NCBI RefSeq assembly: GCF_030269645.1
Contig: NZ_BSTR01000029.1
Span: 1-64,000 of the forward strand
Direction: 5' to 3'
DNA length: 64,000 bases
Origin: Actinokineospora sp. NBRC 105648
GTDB taxonomy: Bacteria > Actinomycetota > Actinomycetes > Mycobacteriales > Pseudonocardiaceae
The notes beneath the pieces are model-generated. The model saw nothing but the letters and a program-made list of their open reading frames with translations, had not been told where the DNA came from and made no database searches. A program made the position numbers and the translations under genes. Of the stretch, positions 41,259 to 57,167 are shown one piece after another (within the stretch, counting starts at the first letter, position 1; every line of letters begins with the position of its first letter).

Positions 41259-41299
41259 GGGTTACATGATGCCCCTGAGGGGGGAGACAGGCACAGCCG

Positions 41300-41340
41300 T
41301 TGACGACGGACACTTGCCTCAGTCATCATTGACTCAATGA
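41300..41340 (+). promoter_or_regulatory. Leaderless ArsR promoter with overlapping operator
   Basis: A TTGACG -35 (41300-41305), a 17-base spacer and a TCATCA -10 (41323-41328) place the start of transcription at or next to the ATG at 41337. A perfect inverted repeat, TCATTGA-C-TCAATGA (41326-41340), overlaps the -10 and the start codon. There is no ribosome site. This fits autorepression by the ArsR domain, relieved by arsenite. Confidence 0.6.
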
Positions 41341-42020: not shown

Positions 42021-42375
42021 CCCGCTGGTTGGAACCTGGAACGGATGGCGGCACATCGCCGCGTTCGACGTCGGCCGGACAGGTCTCGGACCAGCAGCCC
42101 ATGCACCTACCAGGGCGGACCGGGCGCCCGACGGCTCATGGTCCTGGCGCTGATCCCGCTCGCTCAAGCCGCGTAGCCCTGCGGCGAGCCGACGAGCGCG
42201 GCGACCCGTTGGCCCACCTCGCCTCGGCGCACGGCAAGCAGGTCGGCGGTGACCACGCCGCCCAGGTTGTCTTGCCACGTGACAGCCCGATCGGCCACCT
42301 CCCGCCGCGTCGCCGCGCCCGGATTCTGCCTGCGGTTCGGCTCTGCCCGCTCGCCCGCGCTCGCGGTGGTCGGCC
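42021..42375. other. Gap between ArsR-ArsC fusion and aquaporin genes
   Basis: No gene on either strand passes my standard in these 355 bases. One minus-strand frame (about 42164-42330) reads like the end of a real protein (VADRAVTWQDNLGGVVTADL, stop at 42164), but it has no credible start or upstream partner, so it may be a gene remnant. The gap interrupts an otherwise compact arsenic operon. Confidence 0.4.
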
Positions 42376-43059
42376 ATGACCCGCCAACTGTCCCGGGCCC
42401 TGCTCGCCGAGTTCCTCGGCAGCCTCCTGCTCACGGCCCTGGTGATCGGTTCCGGCATCGCCGCCCAACGCCTCTCGCCCGGCGACCGGGGGCTCCAACT
42501 GTTGGAGAACGCCGCCGCCACGGCCGCGGGTCTCTACGCCCTGATCCTGGTCTTCGGCCCCGTCAGCGGCGCGCACTTCAACCCGATCGTGTCCTTTGTA
42601 GACTCCGCACTCGGCGGCCTGCCCCGACGCCGCGCCCTGGCCTATGCCCCCGTTCAAGTAGCCGGCTGCGTAGTCGGGGCGGTCCTCGCCAACGTCCTGT
42701 TCGAAGCCGCCCCGGTCAGCATCAGCACCACCGACCGCGCGAGTTGGGCGCACGGGGTGTCCGAGGTGGTGGCCGCCCTGGGGCTGTTGCTGGTGATCTT
42801 CTCGCTACTCCGCACCGACCGCGCCCAACGGGTGCCCGCCGCCGTGGGTGCCTACATCGGCGCTGCCTACTTCTTCACCAGCTCAACGAGTTTCGCCAAC
42901 CCGGCCATCACCATCGGCCGCGTCTTCAGCGACACCTTCGCCGGGATCGCCCCATCCTCGGTCCCCGCGTTCGTCCTCGCCCAGCTCGCCGCCGGCGCAC
43001 TCTCCGTGCCCCTGCTGCGTTTCCTCTACCCACCTGTCGCAAGCACGGAGGACCCATGA
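42376..43059 (+). CDS. Aquaporin/MIP channel, arsenite-efflux (AqpS) type
   Basis: This 227-residue membrane protein has six helices and the two half-helix NPA signatures: SGAHFNPIVS (NPI variant) and SFANPAITIG. In arsenic islands such channels let arsenite, produced by ArsC, flow out of the cell, replacing an ArsB/Acr3 pump. It lies between the ArsR-ArsC fusion and a separate arsC with a four-base overlap, which supports that role. Confidence 0.9.
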   Translation: MTRQLSRALLAEFLGSLLLTALVIGSGIAAQRLSPGDRGLQLLENAAATAAGLYALILVFGPVSGAHFNPIVSFVDSALGGLPRRRALAYAPVQVAGCVVGAVLANVLFEAAPVSISTTDRASWAHGVSEVVAALGLLLVIFSLLRTDRAQRVPAAVGAYIGAAYFFTSSTSFANPAITIGRVFSDTFAGIAPSSVPAFVLAQLAAGALSVPLLRFLYPPVASTEDP

Positions 43060-43469
43060 CATCGGTGCTGTTCGTGTGCGTGCACAACGCCGGCCGCTCA
43101 CAGATGGCCGCGGGCTGGCTGCGCCACCTGGCAGGCGACCGGGTGGAGGTCCACTCCGCCGGTTCCGCCCCAGCCGACCAGGTGAACCCGGCGGTCATCG
43201 AGGCCATGCGCGAGGTCGGAGTCGACCTCACCACCGAGACCCCGAAGCTCCTCACCCACACCGCGCTCACCGAGTCCGACGTCTGCGTCACCATGGGCTG
43301 CGGTGACGCCTGCCCGGTCTTCCCCGGAAAGCGCTACCTGGACTGGGAGCTGGACGACCCCGCCGGACAGGACCTGGCCGCGGTCCGCCGGATCCGCGAC
43401 CGGATCAGGTCCCTCGTCGAGGCACTGCTGGCCGATCTGGACGCCGGGCCACGCTCGGCGTCGACCTAG
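43056..43469 (+). CDS. arsC: Arsenate reductase, thioredoxin/LMW-phosphatase type
   Basis: This 137-residue enzyme has the active loop FVCVHNAGRSQMAAGW (CX5R) and the later resolving cysteines in VTMGCGDACPVFPGK, followed by WELDDPAGQ. It reduces arsenate to arsenite using thioredoxin or mycothiol/mycoredoxin as electron donor. The ATG overlaps the aquaporin stop by four bases and has a GGAGGA ribosome site. It completes the arsenic island. Confidence 0.93.
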   Translation: MTSVLFVCVHNAGRSQMAAGWLRHLAGDRVEVHSAGSAPADQVNPAVIEAMREVGVDLTTETPKLLTHTALTESDVCVTMGCGDACPVFPGKRYLDWELDDPAGQDLAAVRRIRDRIRSLVEALLADLDAGPRSAST

Positions 43470-43518
43470 ACTGCTCACGTGCCGCCCGGCCCGACAACAC
43501 TCCTGACGACATCGCGTT

Positions 43519-43800
43519 CCCTGCGCTGAAGCCCACCGACTGGGCCGTCGTCCGGCGTGTCTACGCCGAAGGCCTAGCTACCTTCGAGACCGCCGTTCCC
43601 AGCCGTGGACGCTCCAGACGTCGATCTTCGTCGAGAACCGCGCCAGCCTGGCCCTGCACCACACCGCGGGCACCGGACCGTTGGCGTCCTCAAGCACCCT
43701 GTGCACGGGCGGAACCGGCACGCGTCCCCACAAGCGCTGCAGCGCGGTGTACTCGCGGCGCCTGCGCTGGTGCGTCAGGGCCCGCGTAGTCCTTTTCCAC
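43519..43800 (+). pseudogene. Decayed phosphinothricin N-acetyltransferase-like GNAT gene
   Basis: Pieces of a PAT-type GNAT are readable in different frames. The N-terminal part (about 43520-43600) reads LKPTDWAVVRRVYAEGLATF then ETAVPS. After a junction near 43602 the frame WTLQTSIFVENRASLALHHT follows, matching the C-terminal half of PAT proteins. A further frame shift gives RTVGVLKHPVHGR near 43670-43710. The middle, including the acetyl-CoA loop, is missing. So this is a gene with an internal deletion and frameshifts, no longer functional. No intact start remains. Confidence 0.65.
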
Positions 43801-43877
43801 GACCACCCCGTCACCGGTGGTACCCGTGTCGCAGTGGTCGCGTGGGTGGATCTTCGCGTACCGGTCCCGCCGGGCGA

Positions 43878-44246
43878 CTACTTGGTGACGAGCAGGTCCC
43901 AGCCCGCGATGCCCGGGCGGCACTTGTACGAGGTCCAGGCGCCCGCCGCGATGCCTGCGTCGCCCGCGGCCTTGCACTTGGCCAGGGTCGGGAAGGTGGC
44001 GATGTAGGCGTCGGTGAAGGTGCCGTAGGTCGGGTCCGCGCTGAGGCTGTAGCCCGCGATCCCGCTCTGGCACGAGTAGGTCACGAACACCGCCCCGCTG
44101 ACGCCGTTGGTGCCCGCCGAGGTGCACTCGGCGGAGGTGGGCAGGTTGAACAGGTACACCGACGGGATCGCCTGCGCGGGCGTGCCCAGGCCAAGTGCCG
44201 CGACCCCCGCGATGGTGACCGCGGCGATACGGGAAAGGACCGACAT
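43878..44246 (-). CDS. Small secreted protein with two Cys-containing repeats
   Basis: The protein has 122 residues with a Sec signal peptide (SRIAAVTIAGVAALGL, cleavage near AQA-I). The mature part consists of two similar units of about 40 residues. Each has LPTSAEC or FPTLAKC, an SAG/AAG-x2-G stretch, then YSCQSGIAGY or YKCRPGIAGW. The four Cys (two per unit) suggest disulfides after export. An SD (GGAGATA) precedes the ATG. I do not recognise the family and assign no function. Confidence 0.8.
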   Translation of the reverse strand: MSVLSRIAAVTIAGVAALGLGTPAQAIPSVYLFNLPTSAECTSAGTNGVSGAVFVTYSCQSGIAGYSLSADPTYGTFTDAYIATFPTLAKCKAAGDAGIAAGAWTSYKCRPGIAGWDLLVTK

Positions 44247-44856
44247 GATTATCTCCAGTCGTCAATGAGGTCTTCGCTGACGTCATGCTGGAACAACGGG
44301 AGTCATGTTATCCGGGGCGCACAGACCCAAATGGAATCTTTGGTGGTCGGTGCCATTCACGTACAGCGACATTGACCCGAATTGGCTAATGCGACCCGGG
44401 TGATATCGGTGCACCTCATCCGCCGCGGCTCGGTGCGCGGCGCTCGTCGTCCTGGGGTGAATGGCCCATTCCGGTCGGTCACGCTGGGTGACTGAACGTG
44501 GCGCTCACCACTCGATCTAGCGGACTTCGGCCATGGTCGGCCCGAAGTCGCTCCGGCCGGCCGTCGAACGCGGCCCTGACCAGCCGGTCCGGTTCGGCGC
44601 TATTGGTGGCCGAAATCCGCGACAACCATCGTTCGCCTGGGTGATCTCGATCGCCGAAATGGTCGCCTAACAGCCGTCGTCTCTGAATGTGGGAGCTGGT
44701 GGATCGGTTGGGGGATGGGGATCCCTGGGATGGAGTATTGAGCGGGAAGGCGACGGCGTGCTTAGATCGTTTAGTCGACTTCGAGCCTTGCGACCTGGCT
44801 GCCATCCGCCCAAGGACCGGTTTATTCGGGGCGCACTGACAATAACGGGGGAAATT
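44247..44856. other. Long intergenic region, promoter of the second biosynthetic set
   Basis: These 610 bases hold no gene I can support. GC content drops in 44280-44400 and again in 44750-44856, as at promoters. The left part is the leader of the secreted repeat protein, and the right part should contain the promoter for the methyltransferase and following genes. I cannot define boxes with confidence. Confidence 0.45.
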
Positions 44857-45570
44857 GTGGTAACGCCGATGTCGGCACGGGACGAATCCGCTATCCCGCT
44901 CTGGAACGACGCCTACGACACCTCCAGCCTGGCCGGTGGCGCCAACCTCTGGGGCGACCCGCCGGTGCCCTACGCGCAGGTCGCGGCCGAGCTGTTCGCC
45001 GAGCGCGGCGCCGCCGTGGTGCTCGACCTGCCCTGCGGCGACGGCCGCAACCTGCCCCCGCTGGCCGCGGGCGGCTCGGTGCTGCTGGCCGGTGACACCT
45101 CGGTCAACGGCATGGCCATCGCCGAGGCCGTGGTCGACCGGGCGGGCGTGCGCGCGAAGACCGTTTTCCTGCGGCTCAACGCTTTCGACACCGGTCTGCT
45201 GGACAACTCGGTCGACGGCATCTTCTGCTGGGACCTGCTCGGCCACCTCACCGTCCCCGAGGACGCGCTGCGCGAGTTCTGGCGGATCCTGCGCCCGGGC
45301 GGCGCCCTGGTGGCGAACATGTGGACCATGAACGACTGCCAGGTCACCGACCCGAACATCCGCGAGGTCGAGCCGAAGATCTACATCGACCACTTCGACT
45401 TCTACTGCCGCTTCTACGAGCGCCCGGATCTCGACGCGTTGCTGGAATCGGTCGGAATGGTCGCGGAGAATGTGGAGACGCAGCGCTGGTGGGAGCCGCC
45501 GCACTCCGGTTACCGCGATTACGAGCACGAGCACGAGAGCCTCATCTTCACCATTCGCAAGAACGCCTGA
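44857..45570 (+). CDS. Class I SAM-dependent methyltransferase
   Basis: The protein has 237 residues. SAM motif I is VLDLPCGDGRNLPPL, motif II/III region GIFCWDLLGHLTVPED, and FWRILRPGGALVANMW is motif post-III. I use the GTG at 44857 (VTPMSARDES) because ACGGGGGAAA precedes it; ATG 44869 is also possible. The acceptor (N, O or C) cannot be told. It is first in the second biosynthetic set, 59 bases before the kinase gene, so methylation of the amino acid or dipeptide product is plausible. Confidence 0.85.
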   Translation: MVTPMSARDESAIPLWNDAYDTSSLAGGANLWGDPPVPYAQVAAELFAERGAAVVLDLPCGDGRNLPPLAAGGSVLLAGDTSVNGMAIAEAVVDRAGVRAKTVFLRLNAFDTGLLDNSVDGIFCWDLLGHLTVPEDALREFWRILRPGGALVANMWTMNDCQVTDPNIREVEPKIYIDHFDFYCRFYERPDLDALLESVGMVAENVETQRWWEPPHSGYRDYEHEHESLIFTIRKNA

Positions 45571-45629
45571 CCAAGACGCGGCGCGCGGGCAGGCCTGCGG
45601 TGGACCAGCTTGGGGGAGCATTGATCTCG

Positions 45630-46568
45630 ATGACACAGGGGCGCCGGGGTCCCGGCGCGCCGCGGGTCGGCATCGGCACCGCGCACGGCCACCACGGCGA
45701 GCTGGTGCAGGGCGCGTTCAGCAGACCGGGCGGGGCGCTGGTCCGCGCCCTGCTCACCCTGCCGCACCGCGGGATCGGCAGCCGGGTGGTCTTCCACCCC
45801 GAGCCCGGTGCCGCGCTCGTGCTGCCCGGTCCGGGCTACGAGAAGGTCGGCCGGGCGGTCGAGCTGACCCTGCGGGCGCTGTTCGACGAGCCGCCCGGCG
45901 GCCGGGTCGAGGTCACCGGCGACGTCCCGCGCGGGGTCGGCATGGGCTCGTCCACCAGCGACGTCACCGCCGCGATCCGGGCGGTGGCCGACAGCCGCGG
46001 CGCGCCGCTGCCCGACGACGAGGTGGCCCGGCTGGCCGCGCTCGCCGAGGGCGCCTGCGACTCGATCATGGTGGCCGACCGGGTGGTGCTCTTCGCCCAG
46101 CGCGAGGGCGCCGTCGTGGAGACCCTCGCGCCGCGGCTGCCGCCGATGGTCGTGGTCGGCTGCGACACCGACCCCGGTGTCTCGGTCGACACCCTGGCGC
46201 ACGAGCAGCCGCGCTACGGCAGCACCGAGCTGGCCACCTTCGGCGTGCTGCGCAGTGCCCTGCGCCGCTCGCTGACCACCGGTGACGTCGGCCTGCTCGG
46301 CCGCGCCGCCAGCGCCAGCGCCCGGATCAACCAGCGCTTCCTGCCCAAGCAGCCGTTGGACTTCCTGCTCGCGCTGGCCGAGGAGGAGGGGGCCTGCGGG
46401 GTCCAGGTGGCGCACAGCGGCACGGTCGCCGGGGTGATCTTCGACCCGGCCCGGCCGGACACCGCGCACGGGGTCTACCGCGCGGTCGACCGGATCGGCG
46501 CGGCGGGCCTGCCGGTCACCAGCGTGCTGGGCGAGTCGCTGGTGCGCGACGTGCCGGTGGGCGCGTGA
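45630..46568 (+). CDS. GHMP kinase, PduX-like L-threonine kinase
   Basis: The protein has 312 residues. The N-terminus has GTAHGHHGELVQGAF, the mark of PduX-type kinases. The GHMP ATP loop is PRGVGMGSSTSDVTAAIRAV. The family phosphorylates L-Thr (PduX in cobalamin assembly) or related small molecules. There is no cobalamin gene near; instead a PLP synthase and a lyase follow with one-base overlaps. I infer that it makes O-phospho-L-Thr (or O-phospho-Ser) as the activated substrate for the next enzyme. Confidence 0.82.
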   Translation: MTQGRRGPGAPRVGIGTAHGHHGELVQGAFSRPGGALVRALLTLPHRGIGSRVVFHPEPGAALVLPGPGYEKVGRAVELTLRALFDEPPGGRVEVTGDVPRGVGMGSSTSDVTAAIRAVADSRGAPLPDDEVARLAALAEGACDSIMVADRVVLFAQREGAVVETLAPRLPPMVVVGCDTDPGVSVDTLAHEQPRYGSTELATFGVLRSALRRSLTTGDVGLLGRAASASARINQRFLPKQPLDFLLALAEEEGACGVQVAHSGTVAGVIFDPARPDTAHGVYRAVDRIGAAGLPVTSVLGESLVRDVPVGA

Positions 46569-47611
46569 TGCCCGCTCGGCCCTACGGCGAGGCGACCGAG
46601 GCCTACCGGATCCCCAAGCTGATCCGCCTGGCGCCCAACCTCTACGGGGTCTGCTTCACCCTGATGAAGATGATCCCGGCGCGGCACATCCTGCGCCGGG
46701 CCGAGGCCGACGGGCTGCTGGAGCCGGAGACGGTGGTCGTGGAGACCACCTCCGGCACCTTCGGCCTGGCGCTGGCGATGCAGACCGCGCAGGCGGGCAG
46801 GCGGCTCATCCTGGTCAGCGACCCGGCCGTGGACGAGCGGCTGCTGCGCAGGCTCACCGACCTCGGCGCGGTCGTCGAGCGGGTGGCCGCCAAGGCCGCG
46901 GTCGGCGGCTACCAGGCCGCCCGGCTGACCCGGCTGGCCGAGATCCGCCGCGAGCTGCCCTCGACGTTCTGCCCGGAGCAGTACAGCAACCCGGACAACC
47001 CGCGCTCGTACGCGCTGGTGGCCGAGCTGCTGGTGGAGGCGCTGGGCCAGGTCGACTGCGTGGTCGGGCCGGTCGGCTCCGGCGGCTCGCTGTGCGGCAC
47101 CACCCGGTTCCTGCGCTCGGTGCTGCCCGACTGCCACGCGATCGGTGTCGACTCGCACGACAGTGTCCTCTTCGGACACCCGGACGGTCCAAGGGCGCTG
47201 CGCGGCCTGGGGAACAGCCTGATGCCCCCGAACCTCGACCACACCGTCCTGGACAGCGTGCACTGGTGCACCGCCGACGAGGCGTTCCTCGCCACCCGGC
47301 AACTGCACCAGCGGCACGCCCTGTTCATGGGGCCGACCTCGGGCGCGGCGTACCTGTCCGCGCGCTGGTGGGCGCGCGAACACCCCGACGCCCTCACCGT
47401 GGTCCTGCTACCTGACGAGGGATACCGCTACCTAGACACGGTCTACGACGACGCCTGGCTCGCGGCAGAGGGCCACGTCCGCGCCGAGCTGCCGGACGCG
47501 CCGACACCGGTCGCCGACGCGACCGTCCCCGGCACCGTGTGGTCGGCGTTCGACTGGGGCAGGCGCACCTACGCCGACGCCGTGGCCGGCGTCGGCCTGG
47601 CGGTGCGCTGA
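46568..47611 (+). CDS. PLP-dependent beta-replacement enzyme (cysteine synthase/SbnA fold)
   Basis: This 347-residue protein has the fold-type II pattern. The Schiff-base Lys aligns in FTLMKMIPARHILRRAEADG. The substrate loop is ETTSGTFGLAL, and the PLP phosphate loop is VGPVGSGGSLCG. SbnA and related enzymes replace a phosphate or acetate leaving group with an amine nucleophile. With a threonine kinase before and an argininosuccinate-lyase homologue after, the likely reaction is O-phospho-Thr + L-Asp to an N-(aminocarboxypropyl)-aspartate. The asparagine of the usual TSGNTG loop is Thr here, a possible specificity change. ATG at 46568 overlaps the kinase stop by one base (GTG 46565 possible). 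Confidence 0.85.
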   Translation: MPARPYGEATEAYRIPKLIRLAPNLYGVCFTLMKMIPARHILRRAEADGLLEPETVVVETTSGTFGLALAMQTAQAGRRLILVSDPAVDERLLRRLTDLGAVVERVAAKAAVGGYQAARLTRLAEIRRELPSTFCPEQYSNPDNPRSYALVAELLVEALGQVDCVVGPVGSGGSLCGTTRFLRSVLPDCHAIGVDSHDSVLFGHPDGPRALRGLGNSLMPPNLDHTVLDSVHWCTADEAFLATRQLHQRHALFMGPTSGAAYLSARWWAREHPDALTVVLLPDEGYRYLDTVYDDAWLAAEGHVRAELPDAPTPVADATVPGTVWSAFDWGRRTYADAVAGVGLAVR

Positions 47612-49026
47612 TGGCCGCGCTGAGCGGGCTCGGCCCGCGCACCCGGCGGGTCGTCTACGGCGCGCTGCCCCCCGAGGAGGTCGCCGCCGAGCTGGCCTTC
47701 ACCGCCCGCGTCGACCGTGCGCACCTGGTCATGCTCGTCGAGCGCGGCCTGGTCGACCCCGACGCCGCCCGCGCCCTGCTCAAGCTGATCACCGAGCTGA
47801 CCGAGACCGAGTTCGCCGCGCTCGCCGGGCGACCGGCTCCCCGTGGCGTGTACCTGATGTACGAGGGCTACCTCATCGAGCGGCTCGGTGCCGACGTCGG
47901 CGGGGTCCTGCACACCGGCCGCTCCCGCAACGACCTCAAGGCCACCACCACTGCCCTCGACCTGCGCGCCTGGTCGCTCGACTTCGTCGAGCAGGTCGCC
48001 CGGTTGCAGGGGGTGCTGCTCTCCCGGGCCCGCGCCCACCGCGCGGTGGTGATGCCGGTGCACACGCACTTCCAGGCCGCGATGCCGATCACCTACGGCT
48101 ACTACCTGCTGGGCGTCGCGCACGCCGTCGGCCGCGAGCTGCGCTCCTTCCGCGCCGCGGTGTCCGAATTGGACACTTGCCCGCTGGGAGCCGCCGCCGT
48201 GGCCGGAACCGACCTGCCCATCGACCCGGCCCGCACCGCCGCCCTGCTGGGCTTCTCCGGTACCACGTCGCACGCACTGGACTCGTTGGCCAGCCGGGAC
48301 ACCCCGCTGCGCCTGCTGGCCGCGGCCGCGAGCCTGGCGGTGGTGCTCAGCCGCGCGGCAACCGACCTGCAACTGTGGAGCAGCGCGGAGTTCGGGTTCG
48401 TCACCTTCCCCGACCGCTTGGTGGGCGGCAGTTCGGCCATGCCGCAGAAGCGCAACGCGTTCCTGCTCGAGCACGTGCGGGCCAAGGCGGGCCGTGCGAT
48501 CGGGTCGTGGGCGGGTGCCGCCGCCACGGTGAAGTCCGCGCCGTTCACCAACTCCATCGAGGTCGGCACCGAGTCGGTGGCCGAGATCCGGGCGGGCTTG
48601 GCGGCCACGGCCGAGTCCGTCGCGCTCTGCCAGGTGCTGCTCGCCGGCGCTGTCCCGGTCCCCGGTCGGATGGCCGAGCGGGTCGCCACCGGTTTCACCG
48701 CGGCCACCTCGATCGCCAACCGGCTCGTCCGCTCGGGCACGGCTTTCCGCACCGCGCACGAGGTCGTCGGCGACGCCGTCCGCGCGGCGGTCGCCTCGGG
48801 CTCGAGCGAACTGCCCGGTCTCGACGAGGGCCGCACACCCGCCGAACTGGTCGAGGCCCAGCGCTACGGTGGCGGCCCGGGGGCGTTCGACCTCCCGTTC
48901 GACCAAGCTCTCGCCGACTGGTCCGCCCACCGCGAGTGGTGCCGCGCGAAGCACAGTGCCCTCGACGACGCAGCGTCGGCCCTCGACGAGGCCACCCGCA
49001 CCGCTGCCCTGGCGGCCGGGTCGTGA
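47611..49026 (+). CDS. Argininosuccinate lyase homologue (amine-releasing lyase)
   Basis: The protein has 471 residues. It has HTGRSRNDLKATTT, THFQAAMPITYGYYLLG and the superfamily loop GGSSAMPQKRNAFLLE with the catalytic Ser. It is a full-length ASL-type enzyme but no arginine gene is near. In this set it should cleave an aspartate adduct to fumarate and a free amine, giving 2,3-diaminobutyrate (or 2,3-diaminopropionate if Ser is the substrate). One-base overlap with the PLP enzyme gene supports a common pathway. An alternative, nitrosuccinate-type cleavage, is discussed under findings. Confidence 0.85.
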   Translation: MAALSGLGPRTRRVVYGALPPEEVAAELAFTARVDRAHLVMLVERGLVDPDAARALLKLITELTETEFAALAGRPAPRGVYLMYEGYLIERLGADVGGVLHTGRSRNDLKATTTALDLRAWSLDFVEQVARLQGVLLSRARAHRAVVMPVHTHFQAAMPITYGYYLLGVAHAVGRELRSFRAAVSELDTCPLGAAAVAGTDLPIDPARTAALLGFSGTTSHALDSLASRDTPLRLLAAAASLAVVLSRAATDLQLWSSAEFGFVTFPDRLVGGSSAMPQKRNAFLLEHVRAKAGRAIGSWAGAAATVKSAPFTNSIEVGTESVAEIRAGLAATAESVALCQVLLAGAVPVPGRMAERVATGFTAATSIANRLVRSGTAFRTAHEVVGDAVRAAVASGSSELPGLDEGRTPAELVEAQRYGGGPGAFDLPFDQALADWSAHREWCRAKHSALDDAASALDEATRTAALAAGS

Positions 49027-50225
49027 GCACAGAGGTGTTGGTACTGCTGGAAAGCAACACCACCGGTACCGGAAGGCTTTTCTGCGCCTCAGCCCGCGCG
49101 CGCGGTCTTCGGCCGGTTGTGCTGACCCGCGATCCCGCGCGATACCCCTATCTCGCCGAAGACGACATCGACCACGTCGTGGTCGACACCAACGACGCTG
49201 TCGCCGTGCGGGCCGCGCTGCCCGACCACGTCCGGGGTGTCACCAGCAGTTCGGAGCTGTTCATCGGCCCAGCGGCGAGCATCGCGCGGGAACTCGGCCT
49301 GCCCCACCCCGACCCGGAGGCCGTCGCGCTGGCCCGGGACAAGGCGGCGATGCGCGCCGCCCTGCGGTCCGCCGGTTTGCCGGGGCCGGGATTCGCGCAG
49401 GCCGACTCGGTGGACGCGGCCGTGCGGGTGGCGGCGGACATCGGCTTCCCGGTGGTGGTGAAGCCCGTGCACGGAACGGGATCCGCGGGCGTCCGGTTGT
49501 GCACCGACCAGATCGAGGTCAAGGCGGCCGCGGCCGAGCTGGACCCGCGGCCCGTGCTGGTCGAGTCCTACTTGGATGGTCCGGAGTACTCGGTGGAGAC
49601 CTTCGACGGCGCGCCGGTCGTCGTGGTCGCCAAGCACCTCGGACCGCGGCCGCACTTCGTCGAGACCGGCCACGACCTGCCCGCGCCAGTGCCCGCGGCG
49701 ACCCGGTCCGCCCTGGGCCGGGCGGCGGCCGAGGCGCTCTCCGCACTCGGGTTGCGTTGGGGTGCGGCACATGTAGAGCTGCGTGACACCGCGGCCGGCC
49801 CGCGCGTCGTGGAGGTGAACCCCCGGCTGGCGGGCGGGATGATCCCGGCCGCGATCTCCGGTGCGCTGGGCATCGACCTGGTGGACGCCGTCGTGGCGCG
49901 CGCGCTCGGCGAGCCGGTCGACCTCACCCCCCGGCGCGCGCTGTCCGCCGCCATCCGGTTCGTCCTGACCCCCGGACCCGGCACGGTCACCGCCGTCGAC
50001 GGTGTCGAGGAGGCCGAGGGCGTCCCCGGCGTCGAGCGGGTCGGCGTGCTGGCCCAACCGGGCACCGAGGTGCGCGTGCGGAACTCGTTCCAGGACCGGC
50101 TCGGCTATGTCGTGGCCGTCGGCGCCGACCCGACCGAGGCCCGCGCGACCGCCGACGGCGCGGCGGGCCTGCTGCGCTGGCGGCTGACCGGGCCTTGGGG
50201 GTTCGCCGGGAATGGGGCGCAGTAG
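49023..50225 (+). CDS. ATP-grasp carboxylate-amine ligase
   Basis: The protein has 400 residues. ATP-grasp signatures are PVVVKPVHGTGSAGVRLC in the nucleotide loop, VLVESYLDGPEYSVE, and the Mg-binding end VVEVNPRLAGGMIPAAISGA. This arrangement is that of BacD/DabC-like amino-acid ligases. It should activate a carboxylate as acyl-phosphate and join it to an amine, making a dipeptide or amide with the diamino acid of this pathway. GTG start with four-base overlap with the lyase gene. Its partner substrates cannot be told from sequence. Confidence 0.88.
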   Translation: MSTEVLVLLESNTTGTGRLFCASARARGLRPVVLTRDPARYPYLAEDDIDHVVVDTNDAVAVRAALPDHVRGVTSSSELFIGPAASIARELGLPHPDPEAVALARDKAAMRAALRSAGLPGPGFAQADSVDAAVRVAADIGFPVVVKPVHGTGSAGVRLCTDQIEVKAAAAELDPRPVLVESYLDGPEYSVETFDGAPVVVVAKHLGPRPHFVETGHDLPAPVPAATRSALGRAAAEALSALGLRWGAAHVELRDTAAGPRVVEVNPRLAGGMIPAAISGALGIDLVDAVVARALGEPVDLTPRRALSAAIRFVLTPGPGTVTAVDGVEEAEGVPGVERVGVLAQPGTEVRVRNSFQDRLGYVVAVGADPTEARATADGAAGLLRWRLTGPWGFAGNGAQ

Positions 50226-50234
50226 GGTGGGCGA

Positions 50235-50981
50235 ATGGGAATCACACATCACGGTCGCACATATCGCCTCGACTGGGCGGATTCCACCATTCGGGAATGG
50301 GAGTGCACGGTCCTCTGGTCGGACCCGGCGGATCCGGAAGCGGGCGTCGTGCTCGACCGGTCGGCTTTCTACCCCGGTGGCGGCGGCCAGCCGCCCGACC
50401 ACGGCGTGTTGCTGTGGCAGGGAGTCACCACTCGAATTGTGGGCACCCGAAAGGCTGACGACCACTTTCTCCTGCCCGCCCCCGGCGACCCGGTCCCGCC
50501 GGTCGGCACCGTGGTCCAGGGCGCGCTGGACGACGACCGCCGGTCCAGCCTCATGCGCACCCACTCCGGGCTGCACGTGTTGTGCGGCACCGTCTTCCGC
50601 GACTTCGGCGCCTCGGTCACCGGCGGCAACATGGAGCCGGGGGAGGCCCGGATGGACTTCAACCTGCCCACCGTCCCGCCGAACTTCAAGCAGATCCTCG
50701 AGGAGGCGGTGAATGCCGAGATCGAACGCGACCGCGCGATCGACGTCCGTTTCGTGGCGCGGGAGCAGGTGCTCACCGACCCCGAGCTGATTCGCACGCA
50801 GAATGTCGCCCCGCCCGGCGACGACCCCGAATTGCGCGTCGTCGACATCGTCGGCCTCGACGTCCAGGCCGACGGCGGCACGCACGTGGCCTCCACCAAG
50901 CAGATCGGCAGGCTGCAGATCACGAAGGTGGACAACAAGGGCAAGCAGAACCGCAGGGTCCGGGTACGAATCGTGGACTGA
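50235..50981 (+). CDS. AlaX-like alanyl-tRNA editing protein
   Basis: The protein has 248 residues, with YPGGGGQPPD, the zinc site HSGLH (in RTHSGLHVL) and GGTHVASTKQIG, which marks AlaRS-editing-domain proteins. The Cys usually four residues before the second-motif His is Asp here (QADGGTH). Free-standing AlaX proteins hydrolyse Ser- or Gly-tRNA(Ala). Next to genes that may make a non-protein Thr/Ser analogue, it could clear tRNA mischarged with that product. A TAGGGT box 6 bases before the ATG, overlapping the ligase stop, suggests its own leaderless promoter. Confidence 0.88.
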   Translation: MGITHHGRTYRLDWADSTIREWECTVLWSDPADPEAGVVLDRSAFYPGGGGQPPDHGVLLWQGVTTRIVGTRKADDHFLLPAPGDPVPPVGTVVQGALDDDRRSSLMRTHSGLHVLCGTVFRDFGASVTGGNMEPGEARMDFNLPTVPPNFKQILEEAVNAEIERDRAIDVRFVAREQVLTDPELIRTQNVAPPGDDPELRVVDIVGLDVQADGGTHVASTKQIGRLQITKVDNKGKQNRRVRVRIVD

Positions 50982-51002
50982 CACGGCAGGTGTGGGAGCG
51001 GC

Positions 51003-52799
51003 ATGGCGAACGAGCTTTCGGTACTGATCATCGGACTCGGCACGCGCGGGCTGGGCGTCCTGGAACGCCTGCTCGCCATCGCCGCCGCGCACCCCGCCCC
51101 GGTCCGGGTGCAGGTCGTCGACCCGACCTGCGACGGCACCGGCCTGCACACCCCGGCCCAGCCGGACTACCTGCTGCTCAACACCGTCTGCGGCCAGGTC
51201 ACCATGTTCCCCGACCGGGCGATGATCGGCGCGGGCCCGGAGCGTCGGGGCCCGAGCCTCTACGAGTGGGCCACCGGCCGGGACCTGCGCGTTGGCGCCG
51301 ACGGCTGGACCGTCGGCGAGGTCGGCAGGCCGATCCGACCCACCGACTTCCTGCCGCGCCGCGTACTCGGCGAGTACTTGCGCTGGTTCCTCGGCGAACT
51401 GGTCCGGTCCGCGCCCGCCAACGTGCGCGTCACCTTCCACCGCGCGCAGGTCGTGGAGCTGGTCGACCACCTGGGACCCGGCTTGGCCTTCCGGCTCTCC
51501 GATGACACCGTCGCATCGGTCGACTCGGTGTTCCTCACCACCGGGCACACCCCGAACACCCGCCCGGCGGCACCCGGCCGCGTGATCGATGCCCTCTACC
51601 CGCTGCCCGCGACCCTCGACCGCGTCGAGCCCGGCCAATCCGTCGCGATCGGCGGGATGGGCCTCTCGGCGATGGACGCGCTGGCTGCGCTCACCGTCGG
51701 CCGCGGCGGCACGTTCGCGGGCGACCGGCGCTACCGGCCCAGTGGGCGCGAACCGTCCGTGCTGATGTTCTGCACGTCGGGCGTGCCGTTCCGGGCCCGA
51801 CCGTTGGTCAACCGACCACTGCCCGGCTACGTCCCGGTCGCCCTCACCGAACCGACCATCGACCGACTGCGGCACGAACGCGGCCCACTCGACTTCGACA
51901 CCGACCTGCTTCCGTTGGTACTAGCCGAAATGCGCGCCGCCTACCACCGGCGCCGGGCGACGATGGCGGGCGAGCCCGACCCCTTCGCCAACGTGCGCAC
52001 GCCAGGCGAGGTCGAGGTCCTGCTCAACGCACTGGACACCGCACACGGCGGATTCGACGCCTACGCCGCGTGGACCGGCAGCGAGGGCATGGCGTTAACT
52101 TCAGGACAGTCCTATCAGGACTGGGCGGTGGACTTCATCCGAGCGGACCTGGCCGAGGGCGTGCTGGGATTCGAGGGCAGCCCGGTAAAAGCGGGCATCG
52201 ACATCCTGCGCGACCTGCGCGACACGATCCGCTACGCGGTCGACTTCGGCGGCCTGACAGCGGATTCCCTGCGGTCGTTCCTCGCCGTGGCAGTGCCGAG
52301 GATGAACCGCGCGGTCGTGGGGCCGCAGCACGACCGACACCGCGACCTGTTGGCGCTGGTGGAGGCGGGCGTGGTGTCCCTGGCGGCTGGCCCAGCACCC
52401 GAGGTGACGTGGCTGCCGACGGACCGCTGGCGGATCAGCTCGACCCGGTTGGCCGTCCCGTTCGAGCGGGACGTGGACTGGCTCTGCCGCGCCCATGTGC
52501 CGTACCCGGCGGTGGGGTCGTCGGCCAGCCCACTGCTGGTGTCCCTCCGCGAGGCCGGGCTGCTGCGGTCGGTGCCGGGGGCCACCGGGGTCGCGGTCGA
52601 CCGCGACCAGCACCCAATACGAACCGATGGCGCGACAGAACGGCGCATCCGAGTGCTAGGCCCGCTGTGCGAGGGCAGCACGTTCTACAACCACCTGGTC
52701 CCCTCACCGGGCGCCTTCTCCCGTCCACCCGCCGACGCCCAGCGCTGCGTCGCAGCGCTGTTCGGCGCCGACGTCGTCGCCGCCGGACGCGCTTCTTAG
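51003..52799 (+). CDS. Large FAD/NAD(P)-binding oxidoreductase (PF13454-like)
   Basis: The protein has 598 residues. The N-terminal dinucleotide site is VLIIGLGTRGLGVLERLLA, followed by DYLLLNTVCGQVTMFPD, the typical second block of this family. A second Rossmann site is VAIGGMGLSAMDALAAL. The family includes amino-acid N-oxygenases such as CreE, but many members have no known role. Leu365 is encoded by TTA (52095-52097), so translation may depend on the bldA-type tRNA. It has a good GGGAGC ribosome site and ends the second set, 21 bases after the AlaX-like gene. Oxidation of the diamino acid or dipeptide is the most natural guess. Confidence 0.82.
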   Translation: MANELSVLIIGLGTRGLGVLERLLAIAAAHPAPVRVQVVDPTCDGTGLHTPAQPDYLLLNTVCGQVTMFPDRAMIGAGPERRGPSLYEWATGRDLRVGADGWTVGEVGRPIRPTDFLPRRVLGEYLRWFLGELVRSAPANVRVTFHRAQVVELVDHLGPGLAFRLSDDTVASVDSVFLTTGHTPNTRPAAPGRVIDALYPLPATLDRVEPGQSVAIGGMGLSAMDALAALTVGRGGTFAGDRRYRPSGREPSVLMFCTSGVPFRARPLVNRPLPGYVPVALTEPTIDRLRHERGPLDFDTDLLPLVLAEMRAAYHRRRATMAGEPDPFANVRTPGEVEVLLNALDTAHGGFDAYAAWTGSEGMALTSGQSYQDWAVDFIRADLAEGVLGFEGSPVKAGIDILRDLRDTIRYAVDFGGLTADSLRSFLAVAVPRMNRAVVGPQHDRHRDLLALVEAGVVSLAAGPAPEVTWLPTDRWRISSTRLAVPFERDVDWLCRAHVPYPAVGSSASPLLVSLREAGLLRSVPGATGVAVDRDQHPIRTDGATERRIRVLGPLCEGSTFYNHLVPSPGAFSRPPADAQRCVAALFGADVVAAGRAS

Positions 52800-52902
52800 G
52801 CTCCCGCGCAACGAGAACACGTTCGGGTGTCAGGGCGGTGTTGATGTTGCGGCGGGCGCGGGGTTTGGTGAGGCTGGTCCCGCCAATCCCAAGTAGACAG
52901 AT

Positions 52903-52925
52903 CCGCGCGCCGCGCCGGCGCGCGG
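52903..52925 (+). promoter_or_regulatory. Perfect 9-bp hairpin just before a ribosome site
   Basis: CCGCGCGCC (52903-52911) and GGCGCGCGG (52917-52925) form a perfect stem with a five-base loop. It lies immediately before the GGAAGGA ribosome site of the small secreted peptide gene and has no T run after it. It could control translation of the peptide or stabilise its mRNA; it is not a classical terminator. Confidence 0.5.
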
Positions 52926-52939
52926 GCGGAAGGACTCCC

Positions 52940-53122
52940 ATGAACAAGGCTCGTCTGGTCAGGGCGCTCGTGCTGGCCCCGCTGCTCGCCCTGCCGGTCC
53001 TGACCGCGACCGCCGCCACCGGCACCGCGGTTGCCGGTGACGTCCCGGTGTCCGTGGGCACCGGTGACAACGACATCTACCTCGACGTCGACGTCAACCT
53101 CGGTCGCATCGCGATCAACTAG
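52940..53122 (+). CDS. Small secreted peptide (60 residues), unknown family
   Basis: The frame starts with a clear Sec signal (MNKARLVRALVLAPLLALPV, then LTATAATGTAVAG), leaving a mature peptide of about 27 residues ending DIYLDVDVNLGRIAIN. The tail is acidic and strand-like, with no Cys. A strong GGAAGGA site and the hairpin before it support expression. No family is recognised. It is easy to miss because of its size. Confidence 0.6.
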   Translation: MNKARLVRALVLAPLLALPVLTATAATGTAVAGDVPVSVGTGDNDIYLDVDVNLGRIAIN

Positions 53123-53127
53123 GGCCC

Positions 53128-53338
53128 GTGTCGAAGTCGGCCAGAGCCATTCGTCGATCGCGGTGATGTGGACGGTGGTCTCGTGGCGGACGGCGAGCCT
53201 GTCATCTCGCGCAGCCACAGCGCGGTGGCGTTGGAACCGGTTGGCGCCGCACTCCACCGCAGGACGCCGCTTGTAGACCCAGGGGTCGGAGGCCGGTGGC
53301 CGCCCGTCCTTCGACCCCTTTGGCCTTGCGGTGCGCAC
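53128..53338 (-). pseudogene. IS5-family transposase C-terminal remnant
   Basis: The minus strand reads WVYKRRPAVECGANRFQRHR, then AVAARDDRLAVRHETTVHIT and AIDEWL, the C-terminal end of IS5-group (IS112-like) transposases, which normally show YKxRHxVECxINRLKxxR. The N-terminal catalytic part is missing, and I see no terminal inverted repeats. It is a decayed fragment of a mobile element. Confidence 0.6.
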
Positions 53339-53339
53339 C

Positions 53340-53651
53340 CGATCAGGACGAGTGCGCGGCCGTCAGGACCGGAGCGGACCGCGGGCTGTCGCCGCGCCTC
53401 CCGGCGGTCAGCACGAGCGACAACGGCCTCTGCCCCTGCTCACACCCCGGATGCAGCTTGGTCGACGAACCAACCACCGGAGACCTCACCCATCTCAGCC
53501 ACCGACACACCCCACACCGTCACAGCCCAGTCTGCCCGAACCGGCTCCGCAAAGGCCCTGGCGGCGGCCACGACCGGCACCGCGGTCGCCGGTGGCACCT
53601 TCGCCCACCGGTTCGGTGGCGGCATCCGGACCGCGGTCCGCCGGTCCGGGC
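53340..53651. other. Non-coding stretch between IS remnant and azlD
   Basis: No supported gene is present. The sequence is of normal GC and may be more debris of the mobile element; I see no inverted repeats, tRNA or terminator. Confidence 0.45.
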
Positions 53652-53954
53652 TCAGCCCATCATCAGCCGCAGCCCCGCGGTGACGGCGGCAGCCAGTGCC
53701 ACCACCGCCAAGAACGGCAGTCGCAGCAGGATCGCACCCAAGGCCACAGCGAGCCCCACCGTCCGAGTGTCCACCGTCAAACTATCCTTGTCCCCGAAGG
53801 TCTGGATCGCCACCAGCGCCGCGAGCAGCGCCACCGGCAGCAGCGCCGACATCCGCCGCACCTTCGGGTTCTCCAGCCAGGTCTTCGGCACCGACAGCCC
53901 CGCCAGCTTGAGCGCGTAGCAGCCGAGTGAGCCGAGCAGGATCGCGGTCCACAT
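53652..53954 (-). CDS. azlD: AzlD-type branched-chain amino acid exporter subunit
   Basis: This 100-residue protein has about three hydrophobic helices, opening MWTAILLGSLGCYALKLAGL and containing RRMSALLPVALLAALVAIQT, typical of AzlD. It forms an export permease with AzlC for branched-chain amino acids and analogues. It overlaps the azlC stop by one base and is co-translated. Confidence 0.9.
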   Translation of the reverse strand: MWTAILLGSLGCYALKLAGLSVPKTWLENPKVRRMSALLPVALLAALVAIQTFGDKDSLTVDTRTVGLAVALGAILLRLPFLAVVALAAAVTAGLRLMMG

Positions 53955-54739
53955 CAGGCCGACACCTCTTGGCGCTCAACGGGTTCCCGCAGTAACAACC
54001 CCAGCAGCAGCGCGGGGATCGCGGCGACCAGCACCGGCACCCCCGCTGGCAGCAGCGGCACCGCCGCCAGTGCGACGCCCACGGCCGCCAGGGCGGCGAT
54101 CCACGGTTCCCGCGAGTTCATCCGCGGCGCGAGCAGCGCCAGGAACGCCGCGGGCGCGGCCACGTCCAGCCCGAGCACCGCCGGGTCCGGCAGCGACTTC
54201 GTGGCCAGCGCGCCGATCAGCGTCGCGATGTTCCACAGCACGAACACCGAGATCCCGGTCGCGTAGAAGCCCAGCCGCGCCTCGCCGGTCGACTTGCGGC
54301 CCATGGACATCGCGGCGCTCTCGTCGAGCACAAGGTGCGCCGCCAGCAGCTTGCGCAGCCCCTTGACCTCCAGCAACGGCGACAGGTGCAGCCCGTACAA
54401 ACCGTTGCGCGCGCCCAACATCGTCGCCGTGGCCGCGCCCGCCAGCGGCGACGCGCCCGCGCCCGCCACACCGATGATCGCGAACTGCGACGCCCCCGAG
54501 AACATCAGCAGCGACAATGCGCAGGCCTGCGCCACGGAGAAGCCCGCGACCACCGCCAACGCCCCGAAGGAAAGCCCCAGGGCGCCTACCGCCAGCCCAA
54601 CCCCCAGTGAATCTCGAACAATGGTTTTCTTGTCAGTCGGCCGTTCCAAGACGGCACTGTTGTTCCCCGCCACGCAATCCACGGTACCAGTCGGTGAATC
54701 CCGACCGTCCGGAGAATCGATCACTACTGAATCGCACAC
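53954..54739 (-). CDS. azlC: AzlC-type branched-chain amino acid exporter subunit
   Basis: This membrane protein of up to 261 residues contains GALGLSFGALAVVAGFSVAQ, the family motif FSGASQFAI and ARNGLYGLHLSPLL. The first 35-40 residues are not conserved; the start is either the GTG at 54739 or a later GTG such as 54724, and I cannot decide. With AzlD it exports branched-chain amino acids. Its promoter must lie in the 127-bp gap to the divergent lipoprotein gene. Confidence 0.9.
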   Translation of the reverse strand: MCDSVVIDSPDGRDSPTGTVDCVAGNNSAVLERPTDKKTIVRDSLGVGLAVGALGLSFGALAVVAGFSVAQACALSLLMFSGASQFAIIGVAGAGASPLAGAATATMLGARNGLYGLHLSPLLEVKGLRKLLAAHLVLDESAAMSMGRKSTGEARLGFYATGISVFVLWNIATLIGALATKSLPDPAVLGLDVAAPAAFLALLAPRMNSREPWIAALAAVGVALAAVPLLPAGVPVLVAAIPALLLGLLLREPVERQEVSA

Positions 54740-54866
54740 CTATTTTCCCGAGTTTTCGACGCAGAATACTGAATCGCCCACGTCGGCCACGACACCGTGG
54801 TAAACGCCTGCGGAGTAGGTGGAATTACTCATGCGGGACGCACCGGCGGCCGGCTAGGCTGACCGG

Positions 54867-55604
54867 GTGAACCGATCACCGCTGGTGGGGGCCTTGGTGC
54901 TGGCGTTGGCGCTCGCGGGCTGCGCCGAGGGCACCAGCCAGACCGACCGCGAGGCCGACACCATCGCCCTCGCCGTCAGCTACCCGCGCCAGTCCTCGGC
55001 GGCGGGGTTCGCCCGGGCGGTGCTCGGGTCCCCGCCCGCGCCGTCGTCGGAGCGCGCGATCCTGGAGATGCGCGAGCTGGACGCCCGGGCACCGCAGGAC
55101 CCGTTGGCGCACCTGGTGTTCCGGATCCACCACGACGGCGTCGAGTCCGGTTGGAGCAAGACCGACCCGGTCACGGCCTGCTACGCGGCGGACTTCAACT
55201 ACTACGGCGCCATCGGCGAGCCGAAGCGGGTCGACTGCCCGGAGAACGCCGTCCCGATCATCCCGCCGGAGTACCCCGCGTGGTCGAGGCCGGAGGTCTT
55301 CGACCGCGCGCTCGACACCGTGCTGCGCACCCTTCCCGTCCCCGCCGACCAGCGGGCCGTGATCGCGATGCTGAGCCGGGCCGACCTCATCGAACCGCAG
55401 GCCGACACCGACAACCCGGTGCCGCGCGACCCGGCGGTGGACGTCGTAGCTACCCCGGACGAGGTCGGCGTGTCCTTCCACGGCGCGGACGGCACGTGCT
55501 TGCTGGGTTCCCGGCTGCGCACCGACATCCGCACCTGGCGACCCGCCGCCACCGTGCCGTGTACCGCGCAGGCGGCCGCCCAACGCCAGGGCGTCACGCC
55601 CTGA
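54867..55604 (+). CDS. Predicted lipoprotein, unknown function
   Basis: The 245-residue protein begins with a lipoprotein signal, ALVLALALAGC, lipidated at about Cys20. The mature part contains HLVFRIHHDGVESGWSKTD and five more Cys, including DPVTACYAADFNYYG, VDCPENAVP, GTCLLG and VPCTAQ. No family is recognised. The GTG start follows a TAGGCT -10 by six bases with no ribosome site, so the mRNA is probably leaderless. Confidence 0.8.
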   Translation: MNRSPLVGALVLALALAGCAEGTSQTDREADTIALAVSYPRQSSAAGFARAVLGSPPAPSSERAILEMRELDARAPQDPLAHLVFRIHHDGVESGWSKTDPVTACYAADFNYYGAIGEPKRVDCPENAVPIIPPEYPAWSRPEVFDRALDTVLRTLPVPADQRAVIAMLSRADLIEPQADTDNPVPRDPAVDVVATPDEVGVSFHGADGTCLLGSRLRTDIRTWRPAATVPCTAQAAAQRQGVTP

Positions 55605-55714
55605 TTCGACCCCTTTGTCGGGTATTCCCGCAGGTCAGGCCCGGGTCAACGGGTTGTCAGCCCGCCCGCTCACGCTTGCGCCACCAGTGTGTCGGCAGGT
55701 GGCGGGAGTATGAA

Positions 55715-57148: not shown

Positions 57149-57167
57149 ACGGGCCTCCGCTGCCCCC

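What the first reader, a model, noticed from the sequence alone, without database searches (positions are those of the whole stretch)
44857..52799. Second, compact gene set predicted to make a 2,3-diaminobutyrate-containing small peptide
Seen: PduX-like Thr kinase, SbnA-fold PLP enzyme with its Lys conserved, ASL homologue, ATP-grasp ligase, methyltransferase, AlaX-like editor and FAD enzyme, most with overlapping ends. Logic: Thr to O-phospho-Thr, replacement by Asp, fumarate release to 2,3-diaminobutyrate, then ligation. As far as I recall, a Thr kinase/PLP/ASL route has been reported for this amino acid in cirratiomycin. The combination with an ATP-grasp ligase, tRNA editor and large flavoenzyme is new to me. 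It may also supply a residue to the lipopeptide.
Basis: partly seen in the sequence, partly recalled or inferred. Interest (0 to 1): 0.85.

Follow-up and report, generated by a model that had tools for sequence, protein, structure and literature searches.

The report
Cluster for an N-oxidised diaminobutyrate amino acid
A compact set of bacterial genes probably turns threonine into the unusual amino acid 2,3-diaminobutyrate and then oxidises one of its nitrogen atoms, using an apparently unrecognised branch of a known oxygenase family, and it seems to carry its own tRNA editor and amino-acid exporter.

Summary
The seven genes are real and lie where stated. Kinase, PLP enzyme, lyase and ATP-grasp form a widespread four-gene core (all four in 26 of 35 loci with a close PLP homologue; the other three absent from 23 of 23 loci with a distant one). 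ATP-grasp and lyase are fused elsewhere, so the ligase probably belongs to diaminobutyrate formation rather than peptide assembly. The 'large flavoenzyme' is a relative of L-aspartate N-hydroxylase (PDB 8cp2) with an altered substrate site: Asn413 is Asp, Arg577 is Ser. Of loci reached through the FAD protein, 8 of 10 with this altered site have an SbnA-type PLP gene nearby, against 1 of 23 others. The nitrosuccinate lyase of the aspartate enzymes is near 0 of 15 altered-site genes but 14 of 17 canonical ones. I infer a 2,3-diamino-acid N-hydroxylase. With a methyltransferase, an AlaX-type editor and a probable AzlCD exporter, and no peptide synthetase in the operon, a modified free amino acid is likelier than a small peptide. 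The diaminobutyrate route is known; I did not find its coupling to this N-hydroxylase branch in the library searched. Nothing was tested biochemically.

The parts
44857..45570 (+). Class I SAM-dependent methyltransferase (MT), GTG start after GGGGGAA
   Evidence: Pfam Methyltransf_11 55.7 bits; 58-74% identical in the other sets, the 74% over 129 residues only; at E<=1e-20 found in 1 of 396 phylum genomes drawn, its own
45630..46568 (+). GHMP-family small-molecule kinase (KIN), predicted threonine kinase; alternative TTG start 45621
   Evidence: GHMP_kinases_N/C; motif GMGSSTSD; PDB relatives only weak: homoserine, mevalonate and a heptose kinase
46565..47611 (+). SbnA-type PLP beta-replacement enzyme (PLP)
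   Evidence: NCBIfam SbnA 219 bits, below its equivalog cut-off of 350; PDB SbnA 5d87 1.3e-36, K of LMK aligned with K of MK
47611..49026 (+). Argininosuccinate-lyase-family lyase (ASL), predicted to release fumarate and the diamino acid
   Evidence: PRK02186 422 bits, argH 276.4 bits just under its cut-off of 279.5; PDB ArgH 2e9f 2.7e-57
49023..50225 (+). ATP-grasp L-amino-acid-ligase-type enzyme (ATPG), part of the diaminobutyrate core; reaction unresolved
   Evidence: LAL_C2 and ATP-grasp_4; N-terminal half of PRK02186, 352 bits; PDB 3vot 3.1e-20
50235..50981 (+). AlaX-M-type aminoacyl-tRNA editing protein; the Cys of CGGTH is Asp213
   Evidence: NCBIfam AlaXM 200 bits, cut-off 300; Asp in 6 of 6 cluster copies, Cys in PDB 2ztg
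51003..52799 (+). FAD/NADPH N-hydroxylase of the L-Asp N-hydroxylase (FzmM/CreE) family with altered substrate site; predicted 2,3-diamino-acid N-hydroxylase
   Evidence: PF13454; only PDB sequence hit 8cp2/8cp5, 2.8e-59; residue tables and linkage tests
53652..53954 (-). AzlD, small subunit of an amino-acid exporter, probably part of the cluster
   Evidence: PF05437; 64-65% identical to AzlD between KIN and AlaX in L161 and L162
53954..54739 (-). AzlC, large subunit of an amino-acid exporter, probably part of the cluster
   Evidence: PF03591 and TIGR00346, the latter far below its cut-off; 60-65% to L161/L162 against 40% to the genome's other AzlC

Best explanation
The operon makes a modified free amino acid from threonine. 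Inferred steps: (1) KIN phosphorylates L-Thr; (2) PLP replaces the phosphate by the amine of L-Asp; (3) ASL releases fumarate, leaving 2,3-diaminobutyrate, with ATP-grasp needed somewhere in this core; (4) the FAD enzyme N-hydroxylates the diamino acid, perhaps more than once, to a hydroxylamine, oxime or nitro group; (5) MT methylates an N or O; (6) AzlCD exports the product; (7) AlaX strips the product or an intermediate from mischarged tRNA (the compound resembles Thr, Ser and Ala) so the producer is not poisoned. Shown by computation: the protein families, the conserved core, the altered FAD site and its linkage to two different 2,3-diamino-acid routes. Everything about substrates, order and product is inference.
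For: Core: of 35 loci with a PLP homologue at least 45% identical, ASL is in 33, ATP-grasp in 31, kinase in 26, all four in 26; of 23 more distant PLP loci none has any of the three. Proteobacterial plasmids carry the four close together: Azospirillum with a DMT transporter and an Lrp regulator, Sulfuriferula, Mesorhizobium. FAD: the only PDB sequence relative is L-Asp N-hydroxylase. Arg13, Asn62, Arg266, Arg409, Arg412 and Arg416 are kept. I call a protein altered-site if it has Arg13, Asp/Glu413 and Ser/Thr577; all 15 such proteins compared also have Tyr571, whereas the 17 canonical ones have Asn413, Arg577 and Val or Ala571. N413E abolishes Asp hydroxylation in 8cp2 according to the text of PMC10404684 (section 8; its Table 2 heads that row N413A). 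Linkage: SbnA-type PLP gene in the fetched stretch of 8 of 10 altered-site loci reached through FAD alone against 1 of 23 others, Fisher p = 2.7e-5; all eight also match an ornithine-cyclodeaminase/SbnB protein, in L164 in two pieces. Deefgea has sbnA-sbnB-FAD as consecutive genes. CreD-like lyase: 0 of 15 altered-site, 14 of 17 canonical. The ASL route would use Asp and SbnA uses Glu (recalled), so the shared item is the 2,3-diamino acid. Amino acid: in L161 and L162 (two genomes of one genus) FAD, MT, KIN, AzlC, AzlD and AlaX lie in a row on one strand.
Against: No substrate was tested. The groups were drawn after seeing the residues, and related loci are not independent; an earlier split on D/E413 alone gave 5 of 10 against 1 of 16, p = 0.018. 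L161 and L162 have no PLP, ASL or core ATP-grasp in the fetched stretch, and their kinase is only 30% identical; a full core lies about 33 kb away in one (G297), and a kinase, PLP gene and start of an ASL gene about 49 kb away in the other (G226). Six D/E413 proteins that keep Arg577 (3) or lack Arg13 (3) have no diamino-acid gene nearby. The tree does not make D/E413 one clade (2 changes). None of L060, L061, L089, L122 has AzlCD in the stretch held; in the window AzlCD is on the other strand, about 850 bases away. AlaX is not in the 10.8 kb of L089. L165 and L169 have altered-site FAD genes among large NRPS-sized genes, so in those a peptide product is likely. The alanosine cluster holds an Asp N-hydroxylase homologue (AlnM) in a diaminopropionate pathway (PMC7347517, passages), so linkage alone proves no substrate.
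Confidence: 0.55

Rival explanations
1. The ATP-grasp joins diaminobutyrate to a second amino acid and the product is a small modified peptide.
For: The ATP-grasp has the LAL_C2 domain of L-amino-acid ligases, best PDB relative 3vot. Two of the other full sets have a second ATP-grasp close by (L122, L061).
Against: The same ATP-grasp is conserved in the core whatever the surroundings (31 of 35 loci; plasmid sets) and is fused to the lyase in L089 and Mesorhizobium. No other peptide-forming gene is in the window operon.
Confidence: 0.2
2. The FAD enzyme still oxidises L-Asp to nitrosuccinate and the cluster's lyase releases nitrite from it, so the product carries an N-N bond made with nitrite.
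For: Family membership (8cp2), a lyase of the fumarase superfamily in the same operon, and the known pairs FzmM/FzmL and CreE/CreD (PMC7347517, passages).
Against: Asn413 is Asp and Arg577 is Ser, positions that bind Asp in 8cp2. The lyase is of ArgH type, and a CreD-like lyase was found in none of 15 altered-site stretches, the window's included, against 14 of 17 canonical ones. The lyase belongs to a core that mostly occurs without a FAD match: a FAD gene was found in 3 of the 35 close-PLP loci.
Confidence: 0.1
3. The four core enzymes supply 2,3-diaminobutyrate to the large NRPS at 13784-35500, and the other three genes tailor the lipopeptide.
For: On an annotated Streptomyces plasmid the core flanks an adenylation-domain protein, and a large protein of one family recurs beside the core in many loci (family 0). 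Two other cores of this genome lie beside large genes (C6, C13). Gausemycin A contains 2,3-diaminobutyrate, and one producer's cluster has a cysteine-synthase-type and an ASL gene (PMC12471526, passages).
Against: About 9.4 kb separate the NRPS end (35500) from the cluster (44857), the last 4.7 kb of it holding ArsR/LMWP and aquaporin genes. L061 and L122 have the seven genes with no NRPS-sized gene in the stretch held. According to the same paper the other gausemycin producer's cluster lacks those two genes. A-domain specificities were looked at only by eye.
Confidence: 0.12

Closest known systems
Threonine kinase/PLP/lyase route to (2S,3S)-2,3-diaminobutyrate (cirratiomycin; recalled, paper not held)
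   Same: Kinase, SbnA-type PLP enzyme and ASL homologue; I recall a four-enzyme set (CirR, CirS, CirQ, CirB), which would match the four-gene core seen here
   Different: There the amino acid goes into an NRPS heptapeptide (recalled); here it is followed by an N-hydroxylase, methyltransferase, tRNA editor and probable exporter
L-aspartate N-hydroxylase FzmM/CreE family (PDB 8cp2/8cp5)
   Same: Full-length homology, 34% identity, catalytic Asn62 and Arg13/266/409/412/416 kept
   Different: Asn413 to Asp, Arg577 to Ser, Val571 to Tyr, Trp51 to His; no CreD-like lyase found nearby; linked to 2,3-diamino-acid genes
SbnA/SbnB 2,3-diaminopropionate pathway
   Same: SbnA-type PLP enzyme; the same altered-site FAD branch is near SbnA/SbnB-type genes in eight loci
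   Different: Window uses kinase, ASL and ATP-grasp instead of SbnB
L-alanosine biosynthesis
   Same: N-oxidised 2,3-diamino acid as the likely end point
   Different: There N-hydroxylation is ascribed to an acyl-CoA-dehydrogenase-like enzyme on carrier-bound diaminopropionate, and the CreE homologue is proposed as a nitrite source (PMC7347517 and PMC11705231, passages)
PRK02186 (NF002563) ATP-grasp/lyase fusion protein
   Same: Window ATP-grasp and ASL match its two halves with 352 and 422 bits
   Different: Two separate genes here, in the order lyase then ligase, and each alone is under the model's cut-off of 625
AlaX-M alanyl-tRNA editing proteins
   Same: HxxxH motif and the GGTH region
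   Different: Cys before GGTH replaced by Asp in 6 of 6 cluster copies; score under the equivalog cut-off

Membership tests
Thr-derived 2,3-diaminobutyrate cassette | Kinase, SbnA-type PLP enzyme and ASL homologue in one cluster | tested here: met
Thr-derived 2,3-diaminobutyrate cassette | Kinase acts on L-Thr; product is (2S,3S)-diaminobutyrate | not testable with these tools
   Needs assay; kinase only assigned to the GHMP superfamily
L-Asp N-hydroxylase (FzmM/CreE) | Full-length homology and catalytic Asn62 | tested here: met
   alignment of residues 5-582; Asn60 in window
L-Asp N-hydroxylase (FzmM/CreE) | Asp-binding residues Arg276, Asn413, Arg577 | tested here: not met
   Gly, Asp, Ser in the window; N413E inactive on Asp
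L-Asp N-hydroxylase (FzmM/CreE) | Neighbouring nitrosuccinate lyase (CreD/FzmL type) | tested here: not met
   None in window 40000-58000 at E<=1e-10; 14 of 17 canonical loci have one
Argininosuccinate lyase (true ArgH) | Catalytic motifs (recalled) | tested here: met
   GRSRND, THxQ, GGSSxMPQKRN
Argininosuccinate lyase (true ArgH) | Score above the argH equivalog cut-off and arg-gene context | tested here: not met
   276.4 bits against 279.5; another homologue sits behind a gene that looks like argG
SbnA equivalog | Score above TIGR03945 cut-off | tested here: not met
   219 against 350 bits: same family at large, different branch
AlaX-M | Zinc ligands HxxxH and Cys-His (recalled) | tested here: not met
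   HSGLH kept, Cys is Asp213
Hydrazine synthetase (MetRS-like plus cupin) pathway | MetRS-like protein in the cluster | tested here: not met
   The own genome's only hit at E<=1e-20 to the L122 protein is 28% identical, on contig C37; cupins of the window were not searched for. Present in L122, MetRS-like also in L061

The most novel reading that the evidence does not exclude
PF13454 proteins with Arg13, Asp/Glu413 and Ser/Thr577 (8cp2 numbering) are a so far unnamed family of 2,3-diamino-acid N-hydroxylases, recruited by two different pathways (SbnA/SbnB and kinase/PLP/ASL/ATP-grasp). In the window it makes an N-oxidised, methylated 2,3-diaminobutyrate, an amino-acid antimetabolite whose producer protects itself with a dedicated tRNA-editing protein and an AzlCD exporter. 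In some relatives (L122, L061) the N-hydroxylated amino acid is passed to a MetRS-like hydrazine-synthetase part to form an N-N bond.
Probability: 0.42. Interest if true: 0.78.

Novelty: new variant of a known kind. Interest (0 to 1): 0.64.

Why it matters
It turns an unrecognised flavoenzyme into a testable prediction: a residue signature that separates aspartate N-hydroxylases, which feed nitrite into N-N bonds, from putative diamino-acid N-hydroxylases. Genome clusters with such a protein would then not all be read as nitrite makers. It also points to small amino-acid antimetabolites whose clusters carry their own aminoacyl-tRNA editor, a useful marker for genome mining.

Tried and rejected
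Considered and rejected: lyase as housekeeping ArgH (another homologue lies behind a gene that looks like argG); lyase as nitrosuccinate lyase (ArgH-type, no CreD-like match). The neighbouring ArsR/LMWP and aquaporin genes were taken as unrelated: I did not notice them in the gene lists of the other sets, but did not search for them. MT as an arsenic methyltransferase was not pursued: generic methyltransferase matches only. NRPS A-domain codes were read only by eye and are not used. Kinase/PLP pairs at about 40-50% and 30% identity (L034-L054; four opened as L188-L191) lie by what look like ABC-transport genes and were not followed. Paper searches. The 2024 cirratiomycin paper did not turn up (one search found one paper that names the compound, a 2014 review), and the friulimicin and malacidin papers looked up are not held, so what I say of cirratiomycin is recalled. 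Papers seen: PMC10404684 abstract and sections 4, 7, 8, 9; PMC7347517, PMC11705231, PMC12471526, PMC11857848 passages only; the others as search listings only.

Rows left out: the residue table used L110 and L134-L160 beside the earlier rows (L131-L133 repeat L122, L060 and the window); hits without a locus were not examined. All nine D/E413 rows first seen there were opened (L161-L169). Of its fifteen N413 rows, fourteen were opened and G236 (L156) was not; two more N413 regions are this genome's own paralogues. N413 rows at other places (L011, L012, L014-L019, L023) were not opened. Of 56 plasmid records with a FAD match seven were opened, not at random. L110, L021, L022, L024-L028, L153, L158 and L160, which fit neither group, are in no count. 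In some searches, L161 and L162 count as misses for PLP, and the control with a PLP gene is L173.


Full report
WHAT IS THERE. The seven genes are real, co-directional and tightly packed: MT 44857-45570, GHMP kinase 45630-46568, SbnA-type PLP enzyme 46565-47611, ASL homologue 47611-49026, ATP-grasp 49023-50225, AlaX 50235-50981, FAD protein 51003-52799. Families come from NCBIfam and Pfam. Junctions overlap at KIN/PLP, PLP/ASL and ASL/ATP-grasp; the others are 59, 9 and 21 bases apart.

THE CORE. A PLP search of the genome collection gave 58 loci. Of 35 with PLP identity of at least 45%, ASL is in 33, ATP-grasp in 31, the kinase in 26, and all four in 26; of 23 with lower identity none has any of the three (tblastn E<=1e-5). 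The losses include contig ends and two loci with none of the three (L090, and L115, which is a 50-residue match). The kinase is only about 30-34% identical in most of these loci. The four genes also occur on plasmids of Streptomyces, Azospirillum, Mesorhizobium and Sulfuriferula. Window ATP-grasp and ASL match the two halves of one NCBIfam model, PRK02186 (352 and 422 bits), and are one protein in L089 and in Mesorhizobium. So the ATP-grasp most likely belongs to diaminobutyrate formation. What it does there I cannot say. I recall, but could not check, that cirratiomycin's diaminobutyrate needs four enzymes. This genome has two further sets, on contigs C6 and C13, each beside large genes.

THE WHOLE SET. 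The same seven genes in the same order occur in L060 (apparently the same contig as L123), L061 and L122. An alphaproteobacterial MAG, L089, has FAD, MT, PLP, fused ATP-grasp/ASL and a kinase. Two genomes of one genus (L161, L162) have FAD-MT-KIN-AzlC-AzlD-AlaX in a row. In one of these (G297) a full core lies about 33 kb away on the same contig; in the other (G226) a kinase, PLP gene and the start of an ASL gene lie about 49 kb away. The set seems rare: MT at E<=1e-20 was found in 1 of 396 phylum genomes, its own, in a draw that cannot have held G092 and G202, which carry it, and no plasmid record matched at E<=1e-15.

THE FLAVOENZYME. Its only PDB sequence relative is 8cp2/8cp5, the Streptomyces L-aspartate N-hydroxylase (2.8e-59), identified from PMC10404684 (abstract and sections 4, 7, 8, 9 read). 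In that enzyme Asp is held mainly by Arg13, Arg276, Arg416, Arg577 and Asn413, and N413E abolishes hydroxylation of Asp while NADPH oxidation remains (the paper's Table 2 labels that row N413A). The window protein keeps Arg13, Asn62, Arg266, Arg409, Arg412 and Arg416, but has Gly, Asp and Ser at 276, 413 and 577 and Tyr at 571. Fewer positive and more negative charges suit a substrate with an ammonium group where Asp has a carboxylate; this is inference. Many other FAD homologues of the same genus and order have the full Asp site.

TWO TESTS OF LINKAGE. I grouped FAD loci as altered-site (Arg13, D/E413, S/T577) or not. For loci reached through the FAD protein only, an SbnA-type PLP gene lies within the fetched stretch in 8 of 10 altered-site and 1 of 23 other loci (Fisher p = 2.7e-5); the two misses are L161 and L162, and the control hit is L173. 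All eight also match an SbnB-type protein. Deefgea, S. nigrescens and Rhizobium plasmids show PLP, SbnB-type gene and FAD in a row. A CreD-like nitrosuccinate lyase is in 0 of 15 altered-site stretches (here the window, L060, L061, L089 and L122 are included), 0 of 6 other D/E stretches and 14 of 17 canonical ones; the query came from one of those 17 (L205), which is counted. The grouping is post hoc and related loci are not independent. An earlier split on D/E413 alone was weaker: 5 of 10 against 1 of 16, p = 0.018. In the tree, D/E413 needs two changes, not one; the window falls in a set of 12 rows, all D/E413, with support 94/69. Six D/E413 proteins that keep Arg577 or lack Arg13 have no diamino-acid gene nearby.

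HOW IT PROBABLY WORKS. The two routes to which the altered FAD branch is attached use different amine donors as I recall (Asp here, Glu for SbnA), so what they share is the 2,3-diamino acid. Alanosine shows that such chemistry exists, but by a proposed different N-hydroxylase (PMC7347517, PMC11705231, passages).

EDITOR AND EXPORTER. AlaX has Asp in place of the Cys before GGTH in 6 of 6 cluster copies. AzlC/AzlD at 53652-54739 on the other strand are 60-65% identical to those in L161/L162, against 40% to the genome's second AzlC. An amino-acid exporter and a tRNA editor fit a toxic free amino acid better than a peptide. Against this, L060, L061, L089 and L122 lack AzlCD in the stretch held, and two altered-site FAD genes (L165, L169) lie among NRPS-sized genes.

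WHAT IS NEW. The diaminobutyrate core is known. The altered FAD branch and its joining to that core I did not find, all in an open-access library that lacks most subscription journals. Novelty is therefore 'new variant of a known kind'. No biochemical test was possible.

Noticed in passing
L122:11806-15822 and L170:371-1681 (G092), L061:3759-8115: Beside two of the seven-gene sets lie hydrazine-synthetase-type parts: a MetRS-like protein (67% identical between the two), in L122/L170 also a cupin, a Lys/Orn N-oxygenase, a second ATP-grasp and a DDAH-like protein; in L061 a DAO-type oxidase and an ATP-grasp. A further N-N step on the N-hydroxylated amino acid is possible there.
   Followed up: partly
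L124, L163, L164: SbnA/SbnB-type genes, altered-site FAD enzyme and a sulfotransferase close together, with a PAPS-reductase-family protein in L124: perhaps an O-sulfated N-hydroxy-diaminopropionate.
   Followed up: partly
window 41337-43469: ArsR-like/low-molecular-weight-phosphatase protein (41337-42020) and a MIP aquaporin (42376-43059), then a frame that looks by eye like another arsenate reductase: perhaps an arsenic-resistance cassette between the NRPS region and this cluster.
   Followed up: no
own genome C6 (L121) and C13 (L128): Two more kinase/PLP/ASL/ATP-grasp sets, both beside large genes: three such sets in one genome.
   Followed up: partly
L034-L054, four opened as L188-L191: A common kinase (about 40-50%) plus distant PLP (about 30%) pair, near what look like ABC-transport and substrate-binding genes; function unknown.
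   Followed up: no
L120:3620-15519 (Sulfuriferula nivalis plasmid): Core cassette followed by an MFS transporter, PhzF, a second ATP-grasp and an aspartoacylase-family protein, beside an acyl-homoserine-lactone synthase: perhaps a quorum-linked small-molecule cluster.
   Followed up: no
L201, L203, L204, L166-L168: D/E413 FAD proteins that keep Arg577 or lack Arg13 and have no diamino-acid gene nearby: possibly further substrates.
   Followed up: no
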